51,081 nt of DNA from Bacteroidales bacterium (lineage in GTDB: Bacteria > Bacteroidota > Bacteroidia > Bacteroidales > Muribaculaceae). The stretch spans positions 1-51,081 of the forward strand of contig JAAVFI010000002.1 in the NCBI GenBank assembly GCA_014800815.1. The letters run 5' to 3'. Under the pieces are notes generated by a model. It saw only the letters and a list, made by a program, of their open reading frames with translations, did no database searches and had not been told where the DNA came from. Shown here one piece after another: positions 43,870 to 50,760 of this stretch (position 1 is the first letter of the stretch; each line of letters opens with the position of its first letter). A program made the position numbers and the translations under genes.

Positions 43870-43899
43870 AGTACAAAAAAGTACATAAAAATACTTGAC
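43870..43899. repeat. 10-base-phased AGTACA repeats upstream of the defence operon
   Basis: AGTACAAAAA (43870-43879), AGTACATAAA (43880-43889) and the degenerate AATACTTGAC (43890-43899) are spaced by exactly ten bases, one helix turn. They run into the -33 element of the operon promoter. They could be an operator or phased A-tracts that bend the DNA. Confidence 0.45.
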
Positions 43900-43924
43900 C
43901 AACCCCAAATAATTTATAACTTTG
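43895..43924 (+). promoter_or_regulatory. promoter of the MTase-DUF2971-helicase-GIY-YIG operon
   Basis: TTG at 43895-43897 and TAACTTTG at 43917-43924 with a 19-base spacer fit the Bacteroidota consensus. The ATG follows 35 bases after the -7 element. Confidence 0.78.
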
Positions 43925-43959: not shown

Positions 43960-46704
43960 ATGGCAAATAAGACCAAATCATTTTCACTTGTTCAAGCGAC
44001 CGACGCATTAGAGCAACTCGGGCAACGTGGCACATCTGCACATGAATTTATCTTTGAGTTACTCCGCATTTTCGCCGGATATGGAGATGGTCAAATACGT
44101 CGTGTTAAGGAAGGGTCGGGTAATCTTGCAAAAGATAAAGAAACCGTTCTTATCAAGAATCTTGTCGCATATCGTCCCGCCCCCGTTAATACCATCAACG
44201 GGGACTGCTCAAAGTTATATGACATTGTCAATGCCATGCGAGACGATGCCAAGATTACTAAACAATCACCACGTCTTTACATTACAAGTAATGGTGTGCA
44301 TGTTGTAGTTTACGACCCGAAAGATAATGATTGGGATGAGAATAGTATCGAATTGCTTTGGAAAGACTTTGAATTTTTCACGCCTCTTGCAGGTATCGAA
44401 AAGATTCAGTTCTCCGAGGAAGCTGAGGCCGACGTTAAGTCTGCCGAGCTCATGGCGAAACTCTATGACGATATTCGCCGCTACAATGATATTCGAGACC
44501 CACAGACGGTACATGCGCTAAATGTGTTTATGTCACGTCTGCTTTTCTGTTTCTTTGCCGAAGATACAGGATTGTTTCCCGAAGAAAATCTTTTTACCAA
44601 TACACTTAGAACCCATACAAAAGAGGACGGCTCTGATCTCGGCGAGTTTATCGACCGAGCATTCTTTGCTATGTCAACCAACGTCAAGGACGCACTGGAT
44701 ACTTTACCTGACCTATACAAGGTTTTTCCTTATGTAAATGGAGGCCTATTCAAAGAGCGTTTTCCCATTCCTGTTCTCTCTCGCCGAGCCCGCACGTTGA
44801 TTATAAATTGTGGCGAATATAACTGGAGAGAGATTAACCCTGACATCTTCGGCTCGATGATTCAGGCGGTTATCACGCCCGAACAGCGTGCCGGACTTGG
44901 TATGCACTACACATCGGTGCCGAACATCGAAAAGGTTATTTGCCCGCTTTTCTTCGATGAGCTCGAAGAAGAATTTGAGGCTGCTCGTAGTGAAGCTCGC
45001 GAAAAAATCGCAAATAATATCCATTCAGAGCGAGCCACACAGCGACTCCGCAATTTGCTTGGCCGTATGTCGCGTATCAAGTTCTTCGATCCCGCTTGCG
45101 GTAGCGGTAATTTCTTGATTATTTCATACAAACGGCTTCGCGAGCTCGAAATTCGTATCTGGAAAGAACTGCGAGAACTTTCAAAAACTGCTTTTCTTCC
45201 TGTACCAAGCATATCTCTAACACAGTTCTACGGGATAGAACTCGATGGATACGCCTGTGATACAGCCACTCTCTCGCTTTGGCTTGCCGAACATCAGATG
45301 AACGTTAAGTTTAAGGAAGAACTCTACGTCCTTCCCGAAACATTGCCCCTGAAACCATCCGGCCATATCGTCTGCGGCAACGCCTGTCGCATCGACTGGA
45401 ATACAGTTTGTCCCCACACGTCCGAAGATGAAGTCTACATCATGGGAAATCCGCCCTATCTCGGCAGTTCACTCCAAAGCCTTGAACAGAAAGAAGATAT
45501 GCGAATTGCTGTTGGCGAGTTCTGCAAAGGTTATAAAAAGCTGGATTATATTGCTACTTGGTTCTTCAAAGCATCAATATTCTGCAGGGACTCCAAATCA
45601 TCTTTTGCTTTTGTAACTACAAATTCAATTACACAGGGCGAACAGGTACCGATATTGTGGCCTGTATTATTTTCTACTGGCATTTTAATAAAATTCGCTT
45701 ATCCATCTTTTAAATGGAGTAATAACGCTAAGCATAACGCAGGGGTAACCGTGTCTGTTATTGGTTTATCTGTAAATCCCCATACGAGATTCCTATACAA
45801 AAATGGAATGAAACAGGTGGTTAATATGATTAATCCATATTTGGTAGCATCTGACTCCAAAATAGTAGAGCCATCTAAATTGCCCATTTGTAAAGTGCCA
45901 CTTATGACAAAAGGTAGTATTCCTGTTGATGGTGGAAGTCTCGTTTTAGATAAATATGAGGCGGAAAATATTCTCCAAGAGTATCCTTACGCCGATATGT
46001 TCATTAAAAAATATATAGGATCTGATGAATTACTGAACTCTGATTTTAGGTATTGCATATGGGTTGAGGATGAATTTGCTTCTGCTGCATATGAAATTCC
46101 ACCATTCTTCATAAGGTTTGAAAATTGCAGGCAGATGAGACTTAATAGTACAAAACAAGCCACTATTCAAGATGCTCAATATCCTTACCGATTTTCTGAA
46201 CGTAGATTTTTAGACACAGAATGTATTATTGTTCCGTCTCACTCATCAGAAAACAGAGCATATGTGCCAATTGGATATTCTTCAGAAGAATCTGTGATTT
46301 CAAATGCTGCTTTTGCGGTTTATGACGCGGAAAAATGGCTTTTCACCATACTGATGTCTAAAATGCACAACATTTGGATTAGAGCAGTTGCGGGAGCTTT
46401 AGAAACTCGAATTAGGTATTCTAATACGCTTTGCTACAATACCTTCCCATTCCCGAAACTAACAATAGCCCAGAAAGAGGAACTGGAGCGATTGGCGCAG
46501 AACATTCTCAACATCCGCGATGAGAATTTTGATATGACGCTCGGCGAAATGTATAATCCGGAAACTATGCCGGAAGAACTGCGCGAGGCTCATCATCAAC
46601 TCGACCTCGCAGTAGAGCGCATCTACCGTCCTGAGCCGTTCACCTCCGACGAAGAACGCCTCGAACACCTTTTCAAACTCTACGCAAAAATGACAAAGAA
46701 ATAA
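43960..46704 (+). CDS. MmeI-like class I SAM-dependent adenine DNA methyltransferase, nuclease site apparently lost
   Basis: The 914-residue protein follows the MmeI-type order: N-terminal domain (1-150), helical spacer (155-345), methyltransferase core with motif I FFDPACGSGNF (375-385) and motif IV GNPPY (496-500, N6-adenine type), a target-recognition region (about 550-825) and a C-terminal helical tail (833-914). MmeI-family N-terminal domains bear a D..ExK nuclease site. Here the equivalent strand reads ETVLIKN (61-67) without an ExK, so cleavage by this chain is doubtful (judged by eye). The target-recognition part is AT-rich (about 35% GC on sampled lines) against 43-58% in the core. 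It is the first gene of the four-gene operon. It should methylate a specific sequence and may guide the helicase and nuclease. Confidence 0.88.
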   Translation: MANKTKSFSLVQATDALEQLGQRGTSAHEFIFELLRIFAGYGDGQIRRVKEGSGNLAKDKETVLIKNLVAYRPAPVNTINGDCSKLYDIVNAMRDDAKITKQSPRLYITSNGVHVVVYDPKDNDWDENSIELLWKDFEFFTPLAGIEKIQFSEEAEADVKSAELMAKLYDDIRRYNDIRDPQTVHALNVFMSRLLFCFFAEDTGLFPEENLFTNTLRTHTKEDGSDLGEFIDRAFFAMSTNVKDALDTLPDLYKVFPYVNGGLFKERFPIPVLSRRARTLIINCGEYNWREINPDIFGSMIQAVITPEQRAGLGMHYTSVPNIEKVICPLFFDELEEEFEAARSEAREKIANNIHSERATQRLRNLLGRMSRIKFFDPACGSGNFLIISYKRLRELEIRIWKELRELSKTAFLPVPSISLTQFYGIELDGYACDTATLSLWLAEHQMNVKFKEELYVLPETLPLKPSGHIVCGNACRIDWNTVCPHTSEDEVYIMGNPPYLGSSLQSLEQKEDMRIAVGEFCKGYKKLDYIATWFFKASIFCRDSKSSFAFVTTNSITQGEQVPILWPVLFSTGILIKFAYPSFKWSNNAKHNAGVTVSVIGLSVNPHTRFLYKNGMKQVVNMINPYLVASDSKIVEPSKLPICKVPLMTKGSIPVDGGSLVLDKYEAENILQEYPYADMFIKKYIGSDELLNSDFRYCIWVEDEFASAAYEIPPFFIRFENCRQMRLNSTKQATIQDAQYPYRFSERRFLDTECIIVPSHSSENRAYVPIGYSSEESVISNAAFAVYDAEKWLFTILMSKMHNIWIRAVAGALETRIRYSNTLCYNTFPFPKLTIAQKEELERLAQNILNIRDENFDMTLGEMYNPETMPEELREAHHQLDLAVERIYRPEPFTSDEERLEHLFKLYAKMTKK

Positions 46705-46706
46705 TT

Positions 46707-47603
46707 ATGAATGAGTTACTCTATCACTATGCAACAGGAGCGAGTCTACTTGGCATGCTAAAAGACTATACCAAAGATACTCCAAATATAAAATTATGGG
46801 CATCTCATTATATGTACATGAACGATCCTTATGAATATGAAATAGGAGAACAACTATGTACTGAAATAATAGATCGAATTGAATCAGACTTAAAGATACC
46901 CGACGAATATCGGACAAAATCATTTGTGAATACACCCCAATATATTAATGCCGTAAAATCTTATCGTAGAACTATCGATGGACAATCAATTTGCCCCTAT
47001 CTAATATCTATGTCAAAGACGTTTGATTCACTTCATATGTGGAATATGTATGCGTCAAATGGCAATGGTTTAGCATTAGGGTTCAATCGATTAAAATTAT
47101 TAGGAGTTCAAATACTTCCAATGGACTGCCATTATTTTGATAACAATAGTCAATACAATAAAGAGATAATCGACAAACTTGAGCCAGATATTAAAGAGTT
47201 GTATCTCGAACTTGATCAAGAACATCCCTTAGACAATATTCAAGAATCTCTGAAAAACGGAGACCATAGTCTTTTTTACGATCGTCTCCATACTATATAT
47301 ACTTTAATATGTGTTTTTATTGGGATTCGTATTAAGGATATTGCATACAAGTTAGAGAATGAAGTTCGAATAACGACTCCGCACACTCCTGAAGAACCTA
47401 CAATTCTATTCAGAGAACGGAATGGTATAATTATTCCATACATTGAATATCCTATCCCTTTTGATTGTGTTGAAAATATTGTGGTAGGACCCACAGCTGA
47501 TTTTGACAGAGTTAAAGAATCGATCCTTATTTTCTTAAACTCGAAAGGTATACATTGGAATGAAGATAACATTATCCAATCTAAAGTTCCCTATAGAAAA
47601 TGA
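46707..47603 (+). CDS. DUF2971 protein inside the restriction-like operon
   Basis: The 298-residue protein has the DUF2971 signature: LLYHYATGASLLGML (4-18), IKLWASHYMYMNDPYEYEIG (28-47), SMSKTFDSLHMWNMYA (101-116) followed by NGNGLALGFN (118-127), and a late DIAYKLENEVRI (211-222). The biochemical activity of the family is not established to my knowledge; family members turn up beside anti-phage genes, so an effector or toxin role is possible. The gene starts 2 bases after the methyltransferase stop and overlaps the helicase start by four bases. It is distinctly AT-rich (30-33% GC on sampled lines) against 48% or so in the helicase, which suggests a different origin. No signal peptide or membrane helix is evident. 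Confidence 0.85.
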   Translation: MNELLYHYATGASLLGMLKDYTKDTPNIKLWASHYMYMNDPYEYEIGEQLCTEIIDRIESDLKIPDEYRTKSFVNTPQYINAVKSYRRTIDGQSICPYLISMSKTFDSLHMWNMYASNGNGLALGFNRLKLLGVQILPMDCHYFDNNSQYNKEIIDKLEPDIKELYLELDQEHPLDNIQESLKNGDHSLFYDRLHTIYTLICVFIGIRIKDIAYKLENEVRITTPHTPEEPTILFRERNGIIIPYIEYPIPFDCVENIVVGPTADFDRVKESILIFLNSKGIHWNEDNIIQSKVPYRK

Positions 47604-49573
47604 CCAACCTCGTTGAAGTAAAATACGCCCAGACAGGCAAGTCCAGTAATACCGATGAGCTTGGTATGCGCGAAATGCAAGCGATGGTCTATGCGCAGCG
47701 TAACCGTCAACATCTGCTTGTAAAGGCTCCGCCTGCATCGGGTAAGAGTCGTGCTATGATGTTTGTGGCGCTGGATAAACTCGCTAATCAAGGCGTTCGG
47801 AAAGTTATTGTGGCAGTTCCTCAGCAGAATATCGGTCGTAGTTTTAATAATACTCCATTGGAGAAATTTGGATTCTTTGAGGACTGGAGGGTTGCTCCAT
47901 ATTGGAATCTTTGCCTTAACGCCGGAAGCGAAAACTCCAAGAAATCGATAGTTCGTGAGTTCTTGGACGATCCTACAGCCACAAAACTCATTTGTACCCA
48001 TGCTACGCTACTTAACTCGCTAAATGGCATAGATGCGCGTAAACTCGACAATGTGTTCTTCGGCATTGATGAGTTCCATCACGGCTCAGCTGATGAGGAT
48101 AACCGTCTCGGCACATTGATACGCCGACTGCTCAACGAGACATCGGCGCACATCCTCGCCATGACCGGCTCATATTTTCGTGGCGATGCAGTTCCGGTGA
48201 TGCGTCCTGAAGACGAGGCAATGTTTCAGCCGACCATAAACTATAACTATTATCAACAACTCAACGGTTACAAGTGGCTGAAAAGTCTTGGCATTGGTTA
48301 TAGCTTTTTCCAGGGCAACTATCTCACTGCCATTCCCAAAGTTCTCGATACCACAAAGAAAACTCTTATTCACATTCCGCGCCCTAACAGCAAAACGGGG
48401 GCTTTTATGAATAAGCACGATCAAGTGGCTGAGATTATCAAGCACATAGGAGAGATTGTTGACCGCGATTATACCCATAATCTGTATAAAGTCAAAACTT
48501 CGGACGGGAGGATTCTGACTGTCGGTGACCTCGTAGAGGATAAAAAGGAGCAGCGCGACGCATTACAAGCATACCTGCAACGAATGGACAGTCGCGATTC
48601 TCTTGATATTCTCATAGCACTTGGTACTGCAAAGGAAGGTTTCGACTGGGAATGGTGCGAGCATTGTATCACAATCGGCATTCGTGCATCACTGACTGAA
48701 GTAGTTCAGATTATCGGTCGTTGTACCCGTGACTGCGAGGGCAAGACTCATGCACAGTTTACCAATCTCATTCCTTGCCCTGATGCAGCCCAGGATGATG
48801 TTTCAATGGCAGTCAACGATTTCCTGAAAGCTATATCCGCCTCATTACTCATGGAGCAAGTTATGGCACCCAAGTGGAATTTCAAGACAAAGGTCGATGA
48901 TGAAGATAAACCCGAAAAGCCGAATACACCTGGCGAAGATGATCACGTAATCGAAGTAAAGGGGTTGCCTACGCTCAATGAAAAGACGAAGGCGATTGTT
49001 GAGAATGACCTTGACACATTGGTTGCCACTACACTTTCTGATAAAAATATCCGCGAAGCAATTATCGGAGAGGGTATGGCAGAGATGATAACCGAAGTTT
49101 ACATACCCAAGATTATCCGAGAAACTTATCCAGAACTGAATGAGGCGGATGTTGATGCTGTTGCAAAGCATACTATCCTGACAATAGCAACTCAAGGCGA
49201 ACAAGTTACAGTCGATGATTCCGGCAACAGATTCATTAAGATTGCAAATCGATTTGTCAATCTTAATGAACTTGATATAAACCTCATCGCTGAAATTAAT
49301 CCGTTCCAACGCGCTTATGAGGTTGTAAGCAAGTCACTCACTCCTGAAGTATTGCGTACAATTCAATATGTTATAGAGGAAAAACGCTCGGTTAAGCTGA
49401 CCGATGAAGAAGCCATCTTGCTTTTCACAAAATATCTTCCCAAATGGAGAGAAGAGAATCCGGGCAAGGTAAAACCTGAAATTACCGATGGAGACCCATT
49501 AGCCCGAAGAATCGCTATGGCTATTGAACACCTCAGAAATCTTAAACGTCAAAGACTCGCACAGCAACAATGA
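47600..49573 (+). CDS. superfamily 2 DEAD/DEAH-type helicase/translocase of a restriction-like system
   Basis: The 657-residue protein has SF2 motifs: I APPASGKSR (43-51), II IDEFHH (156-161, a DEFH variant of DEAH), III MTGS (188-191), V GTAKEGFDW (342-350) and VI QIIGRCTRD (370-378). A long C-terminal region (about 430-657) starts with an acidic, proline-containing linker, continues as helices, and shows no nuclease motif I can recognise. The two RecA-like halves resemble those of HsdR and Res subunits of type I and III restriction enzymes. It may move along DNA or remodel it for the GIY-YIG nuclease. It overlaps both neighbours by four bases, so expression is coupled. Confidence 0.9.
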   Translation: MTNLVEVKYAQTGKSSNTDELGMREMQAMVYAQRNRQHLLVKAPPASGKSRAMMFVALDKLANQGVRKVIVAVPQQNIGRSFNNTPLEKFGFFEDWRVAPYWNLCLNAGSENSKKSIVREFLDDPTATKLICTHATLLNSLNGIDARKLDNVFFGIDEFHHGSADEDNRLGTLIRRLLNETSAHILAMTGSYFRGDAVPVMRPEDEAMFQPTINYNYYQQLNGYKWLKSLGIGYSFFQGNYLTAIPKVLDTTKKTLIHIPRPNSKTGAFMNKHDQVAEIIKHIGEIVDRDYTHNLYKVKTSDGRILTVGDLVEDKKEQRDALQAYLQRMDSRDSLDILIALGTAKEGFDWEWCEHCITIGIRASLTEVVQIIGRCTRDCEGKTHAQFTNLIPCPDAAQDDVSMAVNDFLKAISASLLMEQVMAPKWNFKTKVDDEDKPEKPNTPGEDDHVIEVKGLPTLNEKTKAIVENDLDTLVATTLSDKNIREAIIGEGMAEMITEVYIPKIIRETYPELNEADVDAVAKHTILTIATQGEQVTVDDSGNRFIKIANRFVNLNELDINLIAEINPFQRAYEVVSKSLTPEVLRTIQYVIEEKRSVKLTDEEAILLFTKYLPKWREENPGKVKPEITDGDPLARRIAMAIEHLRNLKRQRLAQQQ

Positions 49574-50760
49574 TTAACTGGGACAAAGAACTTGAAAAGA
49601 TTTTTGAAGATCCACTTATAGCTGATGTTACCGCGCCAAGAAAGCGTACTACCTCGAGTGACCGCCTTATAGCTGGTTTTCAAGAGATATTATCATTCTA
49701 CGAAGCTAATGGCCGACTTCCCGAAGACAATCCAACGGAATCTTCGCTCTATCATAATTGGCTCGGCGTACTTAAATACGAAAAGAAGATTGAGCGTTGC
49801 CGTCCGTTTGATGACCTCGGCATACTCCCTCAACCTGCAAGCACAGTAGAAGAACCACAGGCTGAATATCTTCGCGAGCTTACGGAGGAAGAACAGCTTG
49901 AAGTTATTCTCAAAGACCCGCTGCTCGAGGATATTAAGAACGGAGCAGACCTCGGACTGTTTGATATTCCGGAATATATGCACCAGCGTCTTGATGCACG
50001 CAAGGAAGCTGAGTATGTCGGAAAACGTCGTCCTTGTGAAGATTTTGACAAATACGCAGATGGTTTCAATAAAATTCAGCTGGGATTGAAATCGGGAACT
50101 CATAAATTAATCAAATTCAGCGTTAAACTTCTCAAGGTTGGAAGTTACTTTGTAGAAGACGGTATGATCGGGTATCTTGCAGCATTTGAGGACGAGGGTG
50201 TTAATCGGCATGGAAATCGTGATGGGCGTACCAGAGTTATTTATGAGAATGGCTCTGAATCTGACATCAGATATAAAACGATTACTAAAAATCTCTCAGT
50301 TACCGGCTATTCTGTGATGGACTGCGCAGACATACCGGCAGAAGATTTTGAAAAATCCTTCACCATAACAGATAAGGATGTAGAAAGCGGTACTATTTAT
50401 GTATTGCGTTCAAAATCTACTCGTCCCGAAATTGCGGCAATCAAAGACCTCTATAAAATTGGATTTACCATTACCTCTGTAGATAGTCGCATTGCTAATG
50501 CTAAGAATGAGCCGACCTATCTTTGCTCAGATGTCGAAGTTGTTGCAACTTGGAAAGTCTATAATGTAAAATCTTCGACGTTTGAGGCTCTTATTCATAA
50601 ACTCTTTGCATCCGTTCAATTACAGGCAACCGTGGACGGACACCGCCCGAAAGAATGGTTTATTGTACCGCTGAGAATTATTGAAGAAGCCATACAAGCT
50701 ATTATTTCTGGCAAAGCTGTTGAGTATGATCCTCAGTTCCAGCAATTAGTATATCTTTAG
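49570..50760 (+). CDS. GIY-YIG nuclease (T5orf172-type) of the restriction-like operon
   Basis: The 396-residue protein ends in a GIY-YIG domain: GTIYVLRS (274-281, GIY part), LYKIGFT (294-300, YIG part), Arg307, the catalytic Glu339 in FEALIHKLF and a closing WFIVPL (363-368). This is the T5orf172/Mug113 branch. Upstream, RDGRTRVIYENGSESD (218-232) is a segment usual in such proteins. The N-terminal half contains two copies of a short motif, EDPLIADV (13-20) and KDPLLEDI (115-122), each followed by helices, a likely internal duplication. It begins inside the helicase stop (ATGA). It is the probable DNA-cutting subunit; all visible catalytic residues are present. Confidence 0.88.
   Translation: MINWDKELEKIFEDPLIADVTAPRKRTTSSDRLIAGFQEILSFYEANGRLPEDNPTESSLYHNWLGVLKYEKKIERCRPFDDLGILPQPASTVEEPQAEYLRELTEEEQLEVILKDPLLEDIKNGADLGLFDIPEYMHQRLDARKEAEYVGKRRPCEDFDKYADGFNKIQLGLKSGTHKLIKFSVKLLKVGSYFVEDGMIGYLAAFEDEGVNRHGNRDGRTRVIYENGSESDIRYKTITKNLSVTGYSVMDCADIPAEDFEKSFTITDKDVESGTIYVLRSKSTRPEIAAIKDLYKIGFTITSVDSRIANAKNEPTYLCSDVEVVATWKVYNVKSSTFEALIHKLFASVQLQATVDGHRPKEWFIVPLRIIEEAIQAIISGKAVEYDPQFQQLVYL

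What the first reader, a model, noticed from the sequence alone, without database searches (positions are those of the whole stretch)
43960..50760. Four-gene restriction-like module: MmeI-type MTase, DUF2971, SF2 helicase, GIY-YIG nuclease
Four genes share one promoter and are joined by 4-bp ATGA overlaps or a 2-bp gap. They provide modification, DNA translocation and cleavage as separate proteins, unlike type IIG enzymes (all in one chain), type I (HsdRMS) or type III (Mod/Res). The gene content does not match DISARM, BREX or Zorya as I know them. A DUF2971 gene sits within it. I think MTase, helicase and GIY-YIG nuclease co-occur in other gut bacteria, but I know of no functional description.
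Basis: partly seen in the sequence, partly recalled or inferred. Interest (0 to 1): 0.85.

Follow-up and report, generated by a model that had tools for sequence, protein, structure and literature searches.

The report
Split restriction operon with swappable cargo
This is a gut bacterium's version of a known three-gene DNA-marking and DNA-cutting module, with a spare slot inside the operon where relatives carry different toxin-like or defence genes; here the slot holds a protein of unknown function that may be an ADP-ribosyltransferase.

Summary
The four genes are real, complete and packed as described. Three form a known set: a nuclease-dead MmeI-type methyltransferase, an SF2 helicase and a T5orf172/GIY-YIG protein, like the DnmA-YeeB-YeeC cluster of Bacillus subtilis (PMC7261158, PMC9973331; passages seen). 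So 'no functional description' is wrong, but 'split restriction-like module' holds up. The methyltransferase's D/ExK nuclease motif is absent in 48 of 48 helicase-linked relatives and present in 21 of 21 without the helicase in view. PADLOC therefore mislabels it as a one-protein type IIG enzyme. The fourth gene, DUF2971, is not core: the junction between methyltransferase and helicase is a variable cargo slot, filled in 42 of 55 loci by unrelated genes, many from toxin, Abi or (often only candidate) defence families; DUF2971 is there in 7 of 55. One AlphaFold model of the DUF2971 protein matches DarT ADP-ribosyltransferases best, weakly; a poorer second model did not repeat this. Reading: a DnmA-YeeB-YeeC-type restriction system carrying an exchangeable back-up effector. 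New variant of a known kind.

The parts
43895..43924 (+). Putative Bacteroidales-type promoter (TTG, 19 bp, TAACTTTG) before the operon
   Evidence: Read; the consensus is recalled, not tested
43960..46704 (+). MmeI-type adenine DNA methyltransferase, DnmA/YeeA-like, 914 aa, nuclease motif absent
   Evidence: Pfam MmeI_N/hel/Mtase/TRD/C; solved MmeI 5hr4 E=1e-154 over residues 133-913; D and ExK positions read T, R, A (row L108)
44005..44481 (+). MmeI_N domain (residues 16-174), the place of the PD-ExK nuclease in MmeI; motif lost here
45853..46461 (+). Target recognition domain (residues 632-834), hypervariable among close relatives
   Evidence: Pfam MmeI_TRD; mean pairwise identity 0.49 against 0.73-0.84 for the other regions, 171 pairs of 19 proteins
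46707..47603 (+). Cargo gene: DUF2971 protein, 298 aa, candidate ADP-ribosyltransferase-like effector
   Evidence: PF11185 E=7e-8; PADLOC candidate family PDC-S31; GC 33.2% against 41.9-45.0% for the three core genes; model pLDDT 80.6, best PDB match DarT 7omv E=0.015, probability 0.94, but TM-score only 0.35/0.47
47600..49573 (+). SF2 helicase/translocase, YeeB-like, 657 aa
   Evidence: Pfam DEAD, ResIII; conserved motifs in 49 relatives
49570..50760 (+). T5orf172/GIY-YIG nuclease, YeeC-like, 396 aa
   Evidence: Pfam T5orf172 E=8e-12, MUG113 E=1e-11; conserved residues in 48 relatives
50389..50703 (+). T5orf172 (GIY-YIG) domain, residues 274-378

Best explanation
A restriction-modification type defence operon of the DnmA-YeeB-YeeC kind. 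The MmeI-like protein recognises a non-palindromic site through its TRD and methylates adenine on one strand (inferred from MmeI and DnmA). Its own N-terminal nuclease is dead (shown by sequence). When it meets an unmethylated site it works as the recognition subunit for the SF2 motor (YeeB-like), which translocates along DNA and lets the GIY-YIG protein (YeeC-like) cut (inferred). Because one-strand methylation leaves one fresh daughter duplex unmodified, cutting should need a second cue, most simply two unmodified sites in a set orientation, as in type III enzymes (inferred). The DUF2971 gene sits in an in-operon cargo slot where relatives carry other toxin or defence genes; it most likely encodes a back-up effector used when the restriction core fails or is inhibited, possibly by ADP-ribosylation (weakly supported).
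For: Core triad: 22 of 22 substantial helicase places in the family sample have GIY-YIG next door. Of 52 helicase loci, 46 show an MTase match (in L029 only a 67-residue piece) and 50 the GIY-YIG gene; the 2 without GIY-YIG end at the contig edge. Dead nuclease: D/ExK at the aligned place in 0 of 48 helicase-linked and 21 of 21 unlinked MTases; 20 of those 21 were re-fetched with wider flanks and none has a helicase or GIY-YIG match. An alignment-free pattern in motif context finds 0 of 49 (window included) and 21 of 21. Intact helicase and GIY-YIG motifs. TRD far more variable than the rest of the MTase. Flanking genes differ: 84 flanking ORFs from loci fall in 78 clusters, by a crude longest-ORF pick. 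263 plasmid records hold a helicase match, 153 of them over at least 80% of it; 118 of the 263 are predicted conjugative. Cargo slot: 42 of 55 filled; contents. Prior work: PMC9973331, PMC7261158 (passages). RM-embedded toxins as a second line of defence: PMC3710099 (passages).
Against: B. subtilis dnmA, yeeB and yeeC showed no restriction of plasmid uptake and no effect on three phages, and the authors call the cluster a relic. No activity of the window's proteins has been tested. One locus, L023, has helicase and GIY-YIG but no MTase in 8 kb upstream; SIR2, HerA and an AlbA_2 gene stand there instead. Some slot genes look like passive insertions: opposite-strand toxin-like genes in L024, L026, L030 and L036, a transposase in L035. 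A loose D-x(7-14)-[EQ]xK pattern occurs by itself in 10 of 49 helicase-linked N-termini, outside the motif context. The DarT match has low TM-scores and high rmsd, failed in a second, poorer model, and profile comparison gave only 0.3-19% probability, depending on the alignment.
Confidence: 0.68

Rival explanations
1. Relic: only the methyltransferase works, as an orphan epigenetic regulator; helicase and nuclease are decaying passengers, as proposed for B. subtilis.
For: B. subtilis deletion results.
Against: In this window all three core genes are full length with conserved motifs; the TRD diversifies fast; helicase matches sit on many plasmids and loci lie in changing neighbourhoods; PMC9973331 reports phage phenotypes for V. 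crassostreae homologues.
Confidence: 0.17
2. Ordinary one-protein type IIG/IIL restriction enzyme with unrelated neighbours, as PADLOC would call it.
For: PADLOC REase_MTase_IIG model, 944 bits.
Against: No D/ExK nuclease motif; constant partner genes.
Confidence: 0.03
3. The slot is a passive insertion hotspot; DUF2971 is an unrelated gene with no tie to restriction.
For: DUF2971 occurs mostly elsewhere: 4 of 39 family-level places lie beside this helicase; opposite-strand and transposase insertions exist; low GC of the gene.
Against: ATGA coupling of DUF2971 to the helicase start; many cargo families are toxin, Abi or PADLOC-listed genes; at the helicase/GIY-YIG junction of the same operons unrelated cargo was seen in 1 of 58 loci, with 7 longer gaps unchecked.
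Confidence: 0.35
4. DUF2971 is an essential fourth core subunit.
For: It lies inside the operon and overlaps the helicase start.
Against: Present in 7 of 55 loci; absent from the 4 plasmid loci read with an intact triad.
Confidence: 0.04

Closest known systems
B. subtilis DnmA(YeeA)-YeeB-YeeC (PMC7261158, PMC9973331; Morgan 2009 as cited there)
   Same: MmeI homologue without endonuclease motif, then SF2 helicase, then T5orf172 protein, same order and strand
   Different: Here a cargo gene (DUF2971) lies between the first two; B. subtilis is described without one, and its YeeB/YeeC are said to lack C-terminal stretches
MmeI, type IIL/IIG restriction enzyme (PDB 5hr4)
   Same: Methyltransferase, TRD and C-terminal domains align over residues 133-913
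   Different: PD-ExK nuclease motif missing; separate motor and nuclease genes
PrrC with the PrrI type I RM system (PMC3710099, passages)
   Same: A toxin gene inside an RM operon, a second line of defence
   Different: PrrC is an anticodon nuclease in hsd genes; here the cargo family is DUF2971 in a DnmA-type operon
PARIS (AriAB)
   Same: A relative (L022) carries an AriAB-like fusion in the same slot; PARIS is triggered by anti-restriction proteins (recalled)
   Different: Not present in this window
DarT DNA ADP-ribosyltransferase (7omv and others)
   Same: Best structural matches of the one better DUF2971 model; several members of both families begin with a LYH[YF]T-like strand
   Different: No Pfam DarT match listed up to E=10; no DarG recognised beside it; different invariant residues

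Membership tests
DnmA-YeeB-YeeC cluster | MmeI-like MTase without PD-ExK motif | tested here: met
DnmA-YeeB-YeeC cluster | SF2 helicase downstream on the same strand | tested here: met
   (one cargo gene in between)
DnmA-YeeB-YeeC cluster | T5orf172 protein directly after the helicase | tested here: met
DnmA-YeeB-YeeC cluster | Direct sequence match to the B. subtilis proteins | not tested
   The B. subtilis sequences were not fetched; only shows that B. subtilis has a MmeI_Mtase match
DnmA-YeeB-YeeC cluster | N6-methyladenine on one strand of a non-palindromic site | not testable with these tools
   Needs long-read methylome
Type IIG/IIL (MmeI) | Active nuclease in the same chain | tested here: not met
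   D/ExK absent
Type III RM | Mod plus a Res subunit holding both helicase and nuclease (recalled) | tested here: not met
   Helicase and nuclease domains are in separate genes; the MTase is of MmeI type
Type I RM | HsdM, separate HsdS, HsdR (recalled) | tested here: not met
   TRD is fused to the MTase; no HsdS or HsdR among the listed matches (for the MTase 25 of 33 families are listed)
DISARM | DrmA/DrmB/DrmC set (recalled) | tested here: not met
   Drm matches only to the MTase: DrmMI 4e-36 and a marginal DrmD, among the 25 of 33 families listed; none for the other three proteins. Genes outside the four were not scanned with PADLOC
BREX | PglZ, BrxC and partners (recalled) | tested here: not met
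   Only weak PglX matches to the MTase core among the families listed
MADS | Eight-gene mad set (recalled) | tested here: not met
   Weak mad2 (6e-10) and mad5 (0.001) matches to the MTase only
DarT / ADP-ribosyltransferase superfamily (for DUF2971) | Sequence family match (PF14487) | tested here: not met
   None listed up to E=10 for 7 proteins (HMMER filters drop most matches above about 0.1)
DarT / ADP-ribosyltransferase superfamily (for DUF2971) | ART fold | tested here: inconclusive
   Window model: 7 of the 8 best PDB matches are DarT entries, the eighth Tpt1, but E 0.015-0.25, TM-scores 0.10-0.50 and rmsd 7-17 A. Second model of pLDDT 70.7: no DarT or Tpt1 among the 50 of 169 matches listed. 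Profile comparison on 51 and 17 sequences: P=2.7e-4 global, 2.4e-3 local against 0.14-0.95 for three controls, probability 12-19%; smaller alignments 9.7% and 0.3%
DarT / ADP-ribosyltransferase superfamily (for DUF2971) | NAD+-dependent transfer | not testable with these tools
   Needs assay

The most novel reading that the evidence does not exclude
DnmA-type split restriction systems of Bacteroidota carry a dedicated guard slot between the recognition subunit and the motor. Whatever effector lies there is kept silent by the restriction complex and released when phage inhibits it. DUF2971, a family with almost no literature in the library searched, is one such effector: a previously unrecognised ADP-ribosyltransferase.
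Probability: 0.25. Interest if true: 0.78.

Novelty: new variant of a known kind. Interest (0 to 1): 0.5.

Why it matters
It corrects an annotation: PADLOC's model calls this methyltransferase a stand-alone type IIG enzyme although its nuclease motif is gone and the motor and cutter are separate genes. It gives a sharp rule (no D/ExK when the helicase is present) that tools can use. It also points to a defined spot in a mobile restriction operon from which toxins and back-up defence genes, known and unknown, can be listed, and gives a structural lead for DUF2971.

Tried and rejected
DUF2971 relatives in viral contigs: two scans, none. Empty-site comparison: of the same-genus loci fetched around the upstream DUF5723 gene only the window's own has a fabG match within the 1.5-kb flank, so no empty site could be shown. 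Second DUF2971 model led by the L003 sequence: lower confidence and no ADP-ribosyltransferase among the listed hits; counted against the idea. Viral structure library: nothing useful. Profile comparison of DUF2971 with DarT: weak. Papers: ten searches; judged by listed titles and starts of abstracts, only the two DnmA papers describe this gene set; some lists were capped at 20, and papers such as the Acinetobacter and review papers listed were not opened. DUF2971 occurs in 1 held paper, of which I saw only the listing; DUF2971 with 'defense' in none. Morgan 2009 and Makarova 2011 are not held, so I cite Morgan through PMC7261158 and PMC9973331, and the Vibrio study through PMC9973331.

Rows dropped before counts: MTases with the same last 400 residues were merged and three rows set aside (L114 and L138 lack the N-terminus; L108 is the window's own MTase cut before the helicase, so the window is not one of the 48). 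L144, L145 and L147 start at a locus edge but include the motif stretch. Of the 21 motif-bearing MTases, 20 were re-fetched with wider flanks (1.7 to about 7 kb downstream); L140 was not. Slot count: 54 of 60 loci had both MTase and helicase in view, plus the window; the other six are L020, L021, L023, L027, L046 and L047 (all but L023 begin within 2 kb of a contig start). Slot families were scanned by one or a few members each; the rest were assigned by BLAST clustering. Two of the opposite-strand RelE matches (L026, L030) and the PIN match (L029) are below Pfam's cut-off.
Full report
What is there. Four + strand genes at 43960-50760 are complete and tightly packed as reported. Pfam gives all five MmeI domains for gene 1, DUF2971 for gene 2, DEAD/ResIII for gene 3 and T5orf172/MUG113 for gene 4. 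Gene 1 aligns with the solved MmeI (5hr4) over residues 133-913 at E=1e-154. PADLOC has a model for gene 1 (REase_MTase_IIG, 944 bits), candidate-family matches for gene 2 (PDC-S31, 3e-8) and gene 4 (PDC-S57, 2e-4), and only weak matches for gene 3 (best PbeA, 2e-6). The host genome (2.77 Mb, 79 contigs) has one helicase match, one full MmeI-type MTase (a second match is below the cut-off) and one DUF2971. The genes before it are fabG-like and DUF5723. The nearest relatives by sequence are records titled Muribaculaceae and other Bacteroidales.

The three-gene core is known. PMC7261158 (passages) says that B. subtilis DnmA is an m6A methyltransferase at GACGAG, homologous to MmeI, in a set of MmeI homologues that lack the endonuclease motif and are flanked by yeeB- and yeeC-like genes; a type I-like RM system had been suggested. 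PMC9973331 (passages) shows that the neighbourhood is conserved in other bacteria, finds no phage effect in B. subtilis, and cites V. crassostreae homologues whose deletion raised sensitivity to some phages.

Dead nuclease tied to partners. I aligned 77 MmeI-like proteins, duplicates included, and read the D and ExK positions from stand-alone relatives. After merging duplicates, 48 MTases with the helicase in view have no D/ExK there, and 21 without it all have D/ExK. The window's own MTase also lacks it. With wider flanks, 20 of the 21 were rechecked: no helicase or GIY-YIG match. An alignment-free check agrees: the motif in its hydrophobic context is in 0 of 49 helicase-linked (window included) and 21 of 21 others; a loose version of the pattern occurs in 10 of the 49, outside that context. 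Two motif-less MTases from the phylum sample that had shown no helicase in the narrow locus (L119, L120) turned out to have both partners (L170, L171); they repeat L052 and L039, so they are not independent of the 48.

Co-occurrence. Family sample: helicase in 24 of 297 genomes; 22 of 25 places are substantial and all 22 have GIY-YIG adjacent. Across 52 loci from genome contigs, 46 show an MTase match and 50 the GIY-YIG gene. Of the six without MTase, five begin within 2 kb of a contig start; L023 is a true exception: SIR2, HerA, AlbA_2, helicase, GIY-YIG, no MTase in 8 kb. On plasmids, 263 of 72,556 records have a helicase match (153 over at least 80% of the query), 118 of the 263 predicted conjugative; 2 of 50,697 phage records have a partial match. 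Four of the six plasmid records I opened have an intact MTase-helicase-GIY-YIG run without cargo; in the other two the MTase is annotated as broken or cut.

The cargo slot. Between MTase and helicase the gap is over 150 bp in 42 of 55 loci, window included; in the other 13 it is 15 bp or less, or 55 and 118 bp. Contents: SLFN_AlbA_2 with HATPase in 9 loci; DUF2971 in 7; a 246-251 aa family of unknown function in 5; a small membrane-type family in 4; RhuM in 4; a CxxC/SHVF family of unknown function in 4; AbiJ_NTD4 in 3; Zeta toxin in 2; DUF1016/YhcG nuclease in 2; PD-T4-9_A-like genes in 2; AriAB (PARIS) fusion in 1; HTH plus Gp49 pair in 1; BRO-N in 1; opposite-strand YoeB/RelE-type genes in 4 (two below the cut-off); others unknown. 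By my hand tally, 26 of 42 filled slots hold at least one toxin, Abi or PADLOC-listed family other than DUF2971 (several of these are only PADLOC candidates); leaving out slots where AlbA_2 is the only such family gives 19 of 42. Five slots have DUF2971 as the only recognised gene, and 11 have nothing recognised or only a weak or transposase match. A control inside the same operons: the helicase/GIY-YIG junction is 12 bp or less in 43 of 58 loci. In the other 15 the extra sequence is a split-off N-terminal piece of the GIY-YIG protein in 7 of 7 tested; L039 has an unrelated small ORF by eye, and 7 were not checked. Loci titled as outside Bacteroidota with MTase and helicase in view (Psychrobacter L041, L042, L044; Campylobacterales L040) and the four intact plasmid loci have no cargo, so the slot looks mainly a Bacteroidota habit; the sample is small. 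One cargo-bearing record is titled Lachnoclostridium (L019), but it repeats a contig of G170, a genome placed in the window's family.

Signs of an arms race and mobility. Among 19 close relatives (171 pairs) the TRD is 0.49 identical on average, other MTase regions 0.73-0.84; the helicase is 0.87 and the GIY-YIG protein 0.75 (17 loci). Flanking ORFs of the loci (38 upstream, 46 downstream, each the longest ORF within 1.5 kb, so some may be spurious) fall in 78 clusters. The DUF2971 gene has GC 33.2% against 41.9-45.0% for the core genes and 49.9% for the window, which fits separate arrival.

DUF2971. In 149 genomes of the family it occurs in 31, at 39 places, of which 4 lie beside this helicase. 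Across 51 aligned members W112, Y143, K210, E219 and R221 are invariant, and D40 (50) and E217 (49) nearly so, which suggests an enzyme. The AlphaFold model from six sequences has pLDDT 80.6 and pTM 0.77. Its PDB matches are led by DarT (7omv E=0.015, probability 0.94; seven of the top eight are DarT entries, one Tpt1; that both are ART-fold is recalled), but none passes E=0.001 and the superpositions are poor (TM-score at most 0.50, rmsd 7-17 A). A second model led by L003 (pLDDT 70.7, pTM 0.59) gave no such match among the 50 listed. Profile comparison with 17 DarT sequences beat three controls but at only 12-19% probability, and less with fewer sequences (9.7% and 0.3%). I hold the ART fold at roughly even odds.

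Mechanism. Shown by sequence: loss of the MTase's own nuclease motif, intact motifs in the other two core proteins, fixed gene order, variable TRD, variable cargo. Inferred from family knowledge: one-strand m6A at an asymmetric site; MTase as recognition subunit; ATP-driven translocation; GIY-YIG cleavage; a two-site or orientation rule to spare freshly replicated host DNA. Inferred by analogy with PrrC (PMC3710099, passages) and with PARIS in the same slot of L022: the cargo acts as a second line when the core is beaten. No step has been tested by experiment for this window.

Verdict. The core is a known kind of system, so the original claim of an undescribed module is too strong. What I add is the partner-dependent loss of the nuclease motif counted across loci, the cargo slot, and the structural lead for DUF2971. 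In the searches I ran I saw no listing that describes the slot; I read passages of four papers only.

Noticed in passing
L022, L024, L025, L028-L033, L035-L038, between helicase and GIY-YIG gene; plasmid loci L257, L259: The GIY-YIG protein appears split: a separate ORF of about 90-104 aa matches the N-terminal 86 residues of the window's protein in 7 of 7 tested (L022, L024, L030, L033, L035, L036, L038); the others have a gap of similar size. Proteus and Acinetobacter plasmids also have a hypothetical protein of about 95 aa there.
   Followed up: partly
L023:3050-11495 (Bacteroides ihuae): SIR2-HerA pair, AlbA_2/HATPase gene, then the helicase and GIY-YIG genes with no methyltransferase: the motor-nuclease pair may work with another partner.
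   Followed up: partly
L022:5060-8008: The slot holds an AriAB (PARIS-like) fusion followed by RhuM. PARIS is, as I recall, triggered by anti-restriction proteins, which would suit a guard slot.
   Followed up: no
L010:7003-8016, L051:7006-8016, L113:4528-5544, L114:3937-4920: An unannotated cargo family of about 330 aa with a CxxC...SHVF start and no Pfam or PADLOC match in the two members scanned, seen in four slots.
   Followed up: no
L001:4153-4893, L002:7261-8016, L009:7255-8001, L016:7268-8008, L110:2805-3551: An unannotated cargo family of about 250 aa, no Pfam or PADLOC match in the two members scanned, in five slots.
   Followed up: no
L253:1154-1492 (about 0.9 kb past the operon, just outside the window): A Polbeta/NTP_transf_2 nucleotidyltransferase gene of 112 aa, a type often half of a toxin-antitoxin pair (recalled); I did not search for a partner beyond reading the nearby ORFs.
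   Followed up: no
L019 (JAMPAP010000020.1): Record titled Lachnoclostridium, but its contig has the same length as G170:C12 and the same helicase over the 250 residues compared; G170 is in the window's family: probably a wrong title.
   Followed up: partly
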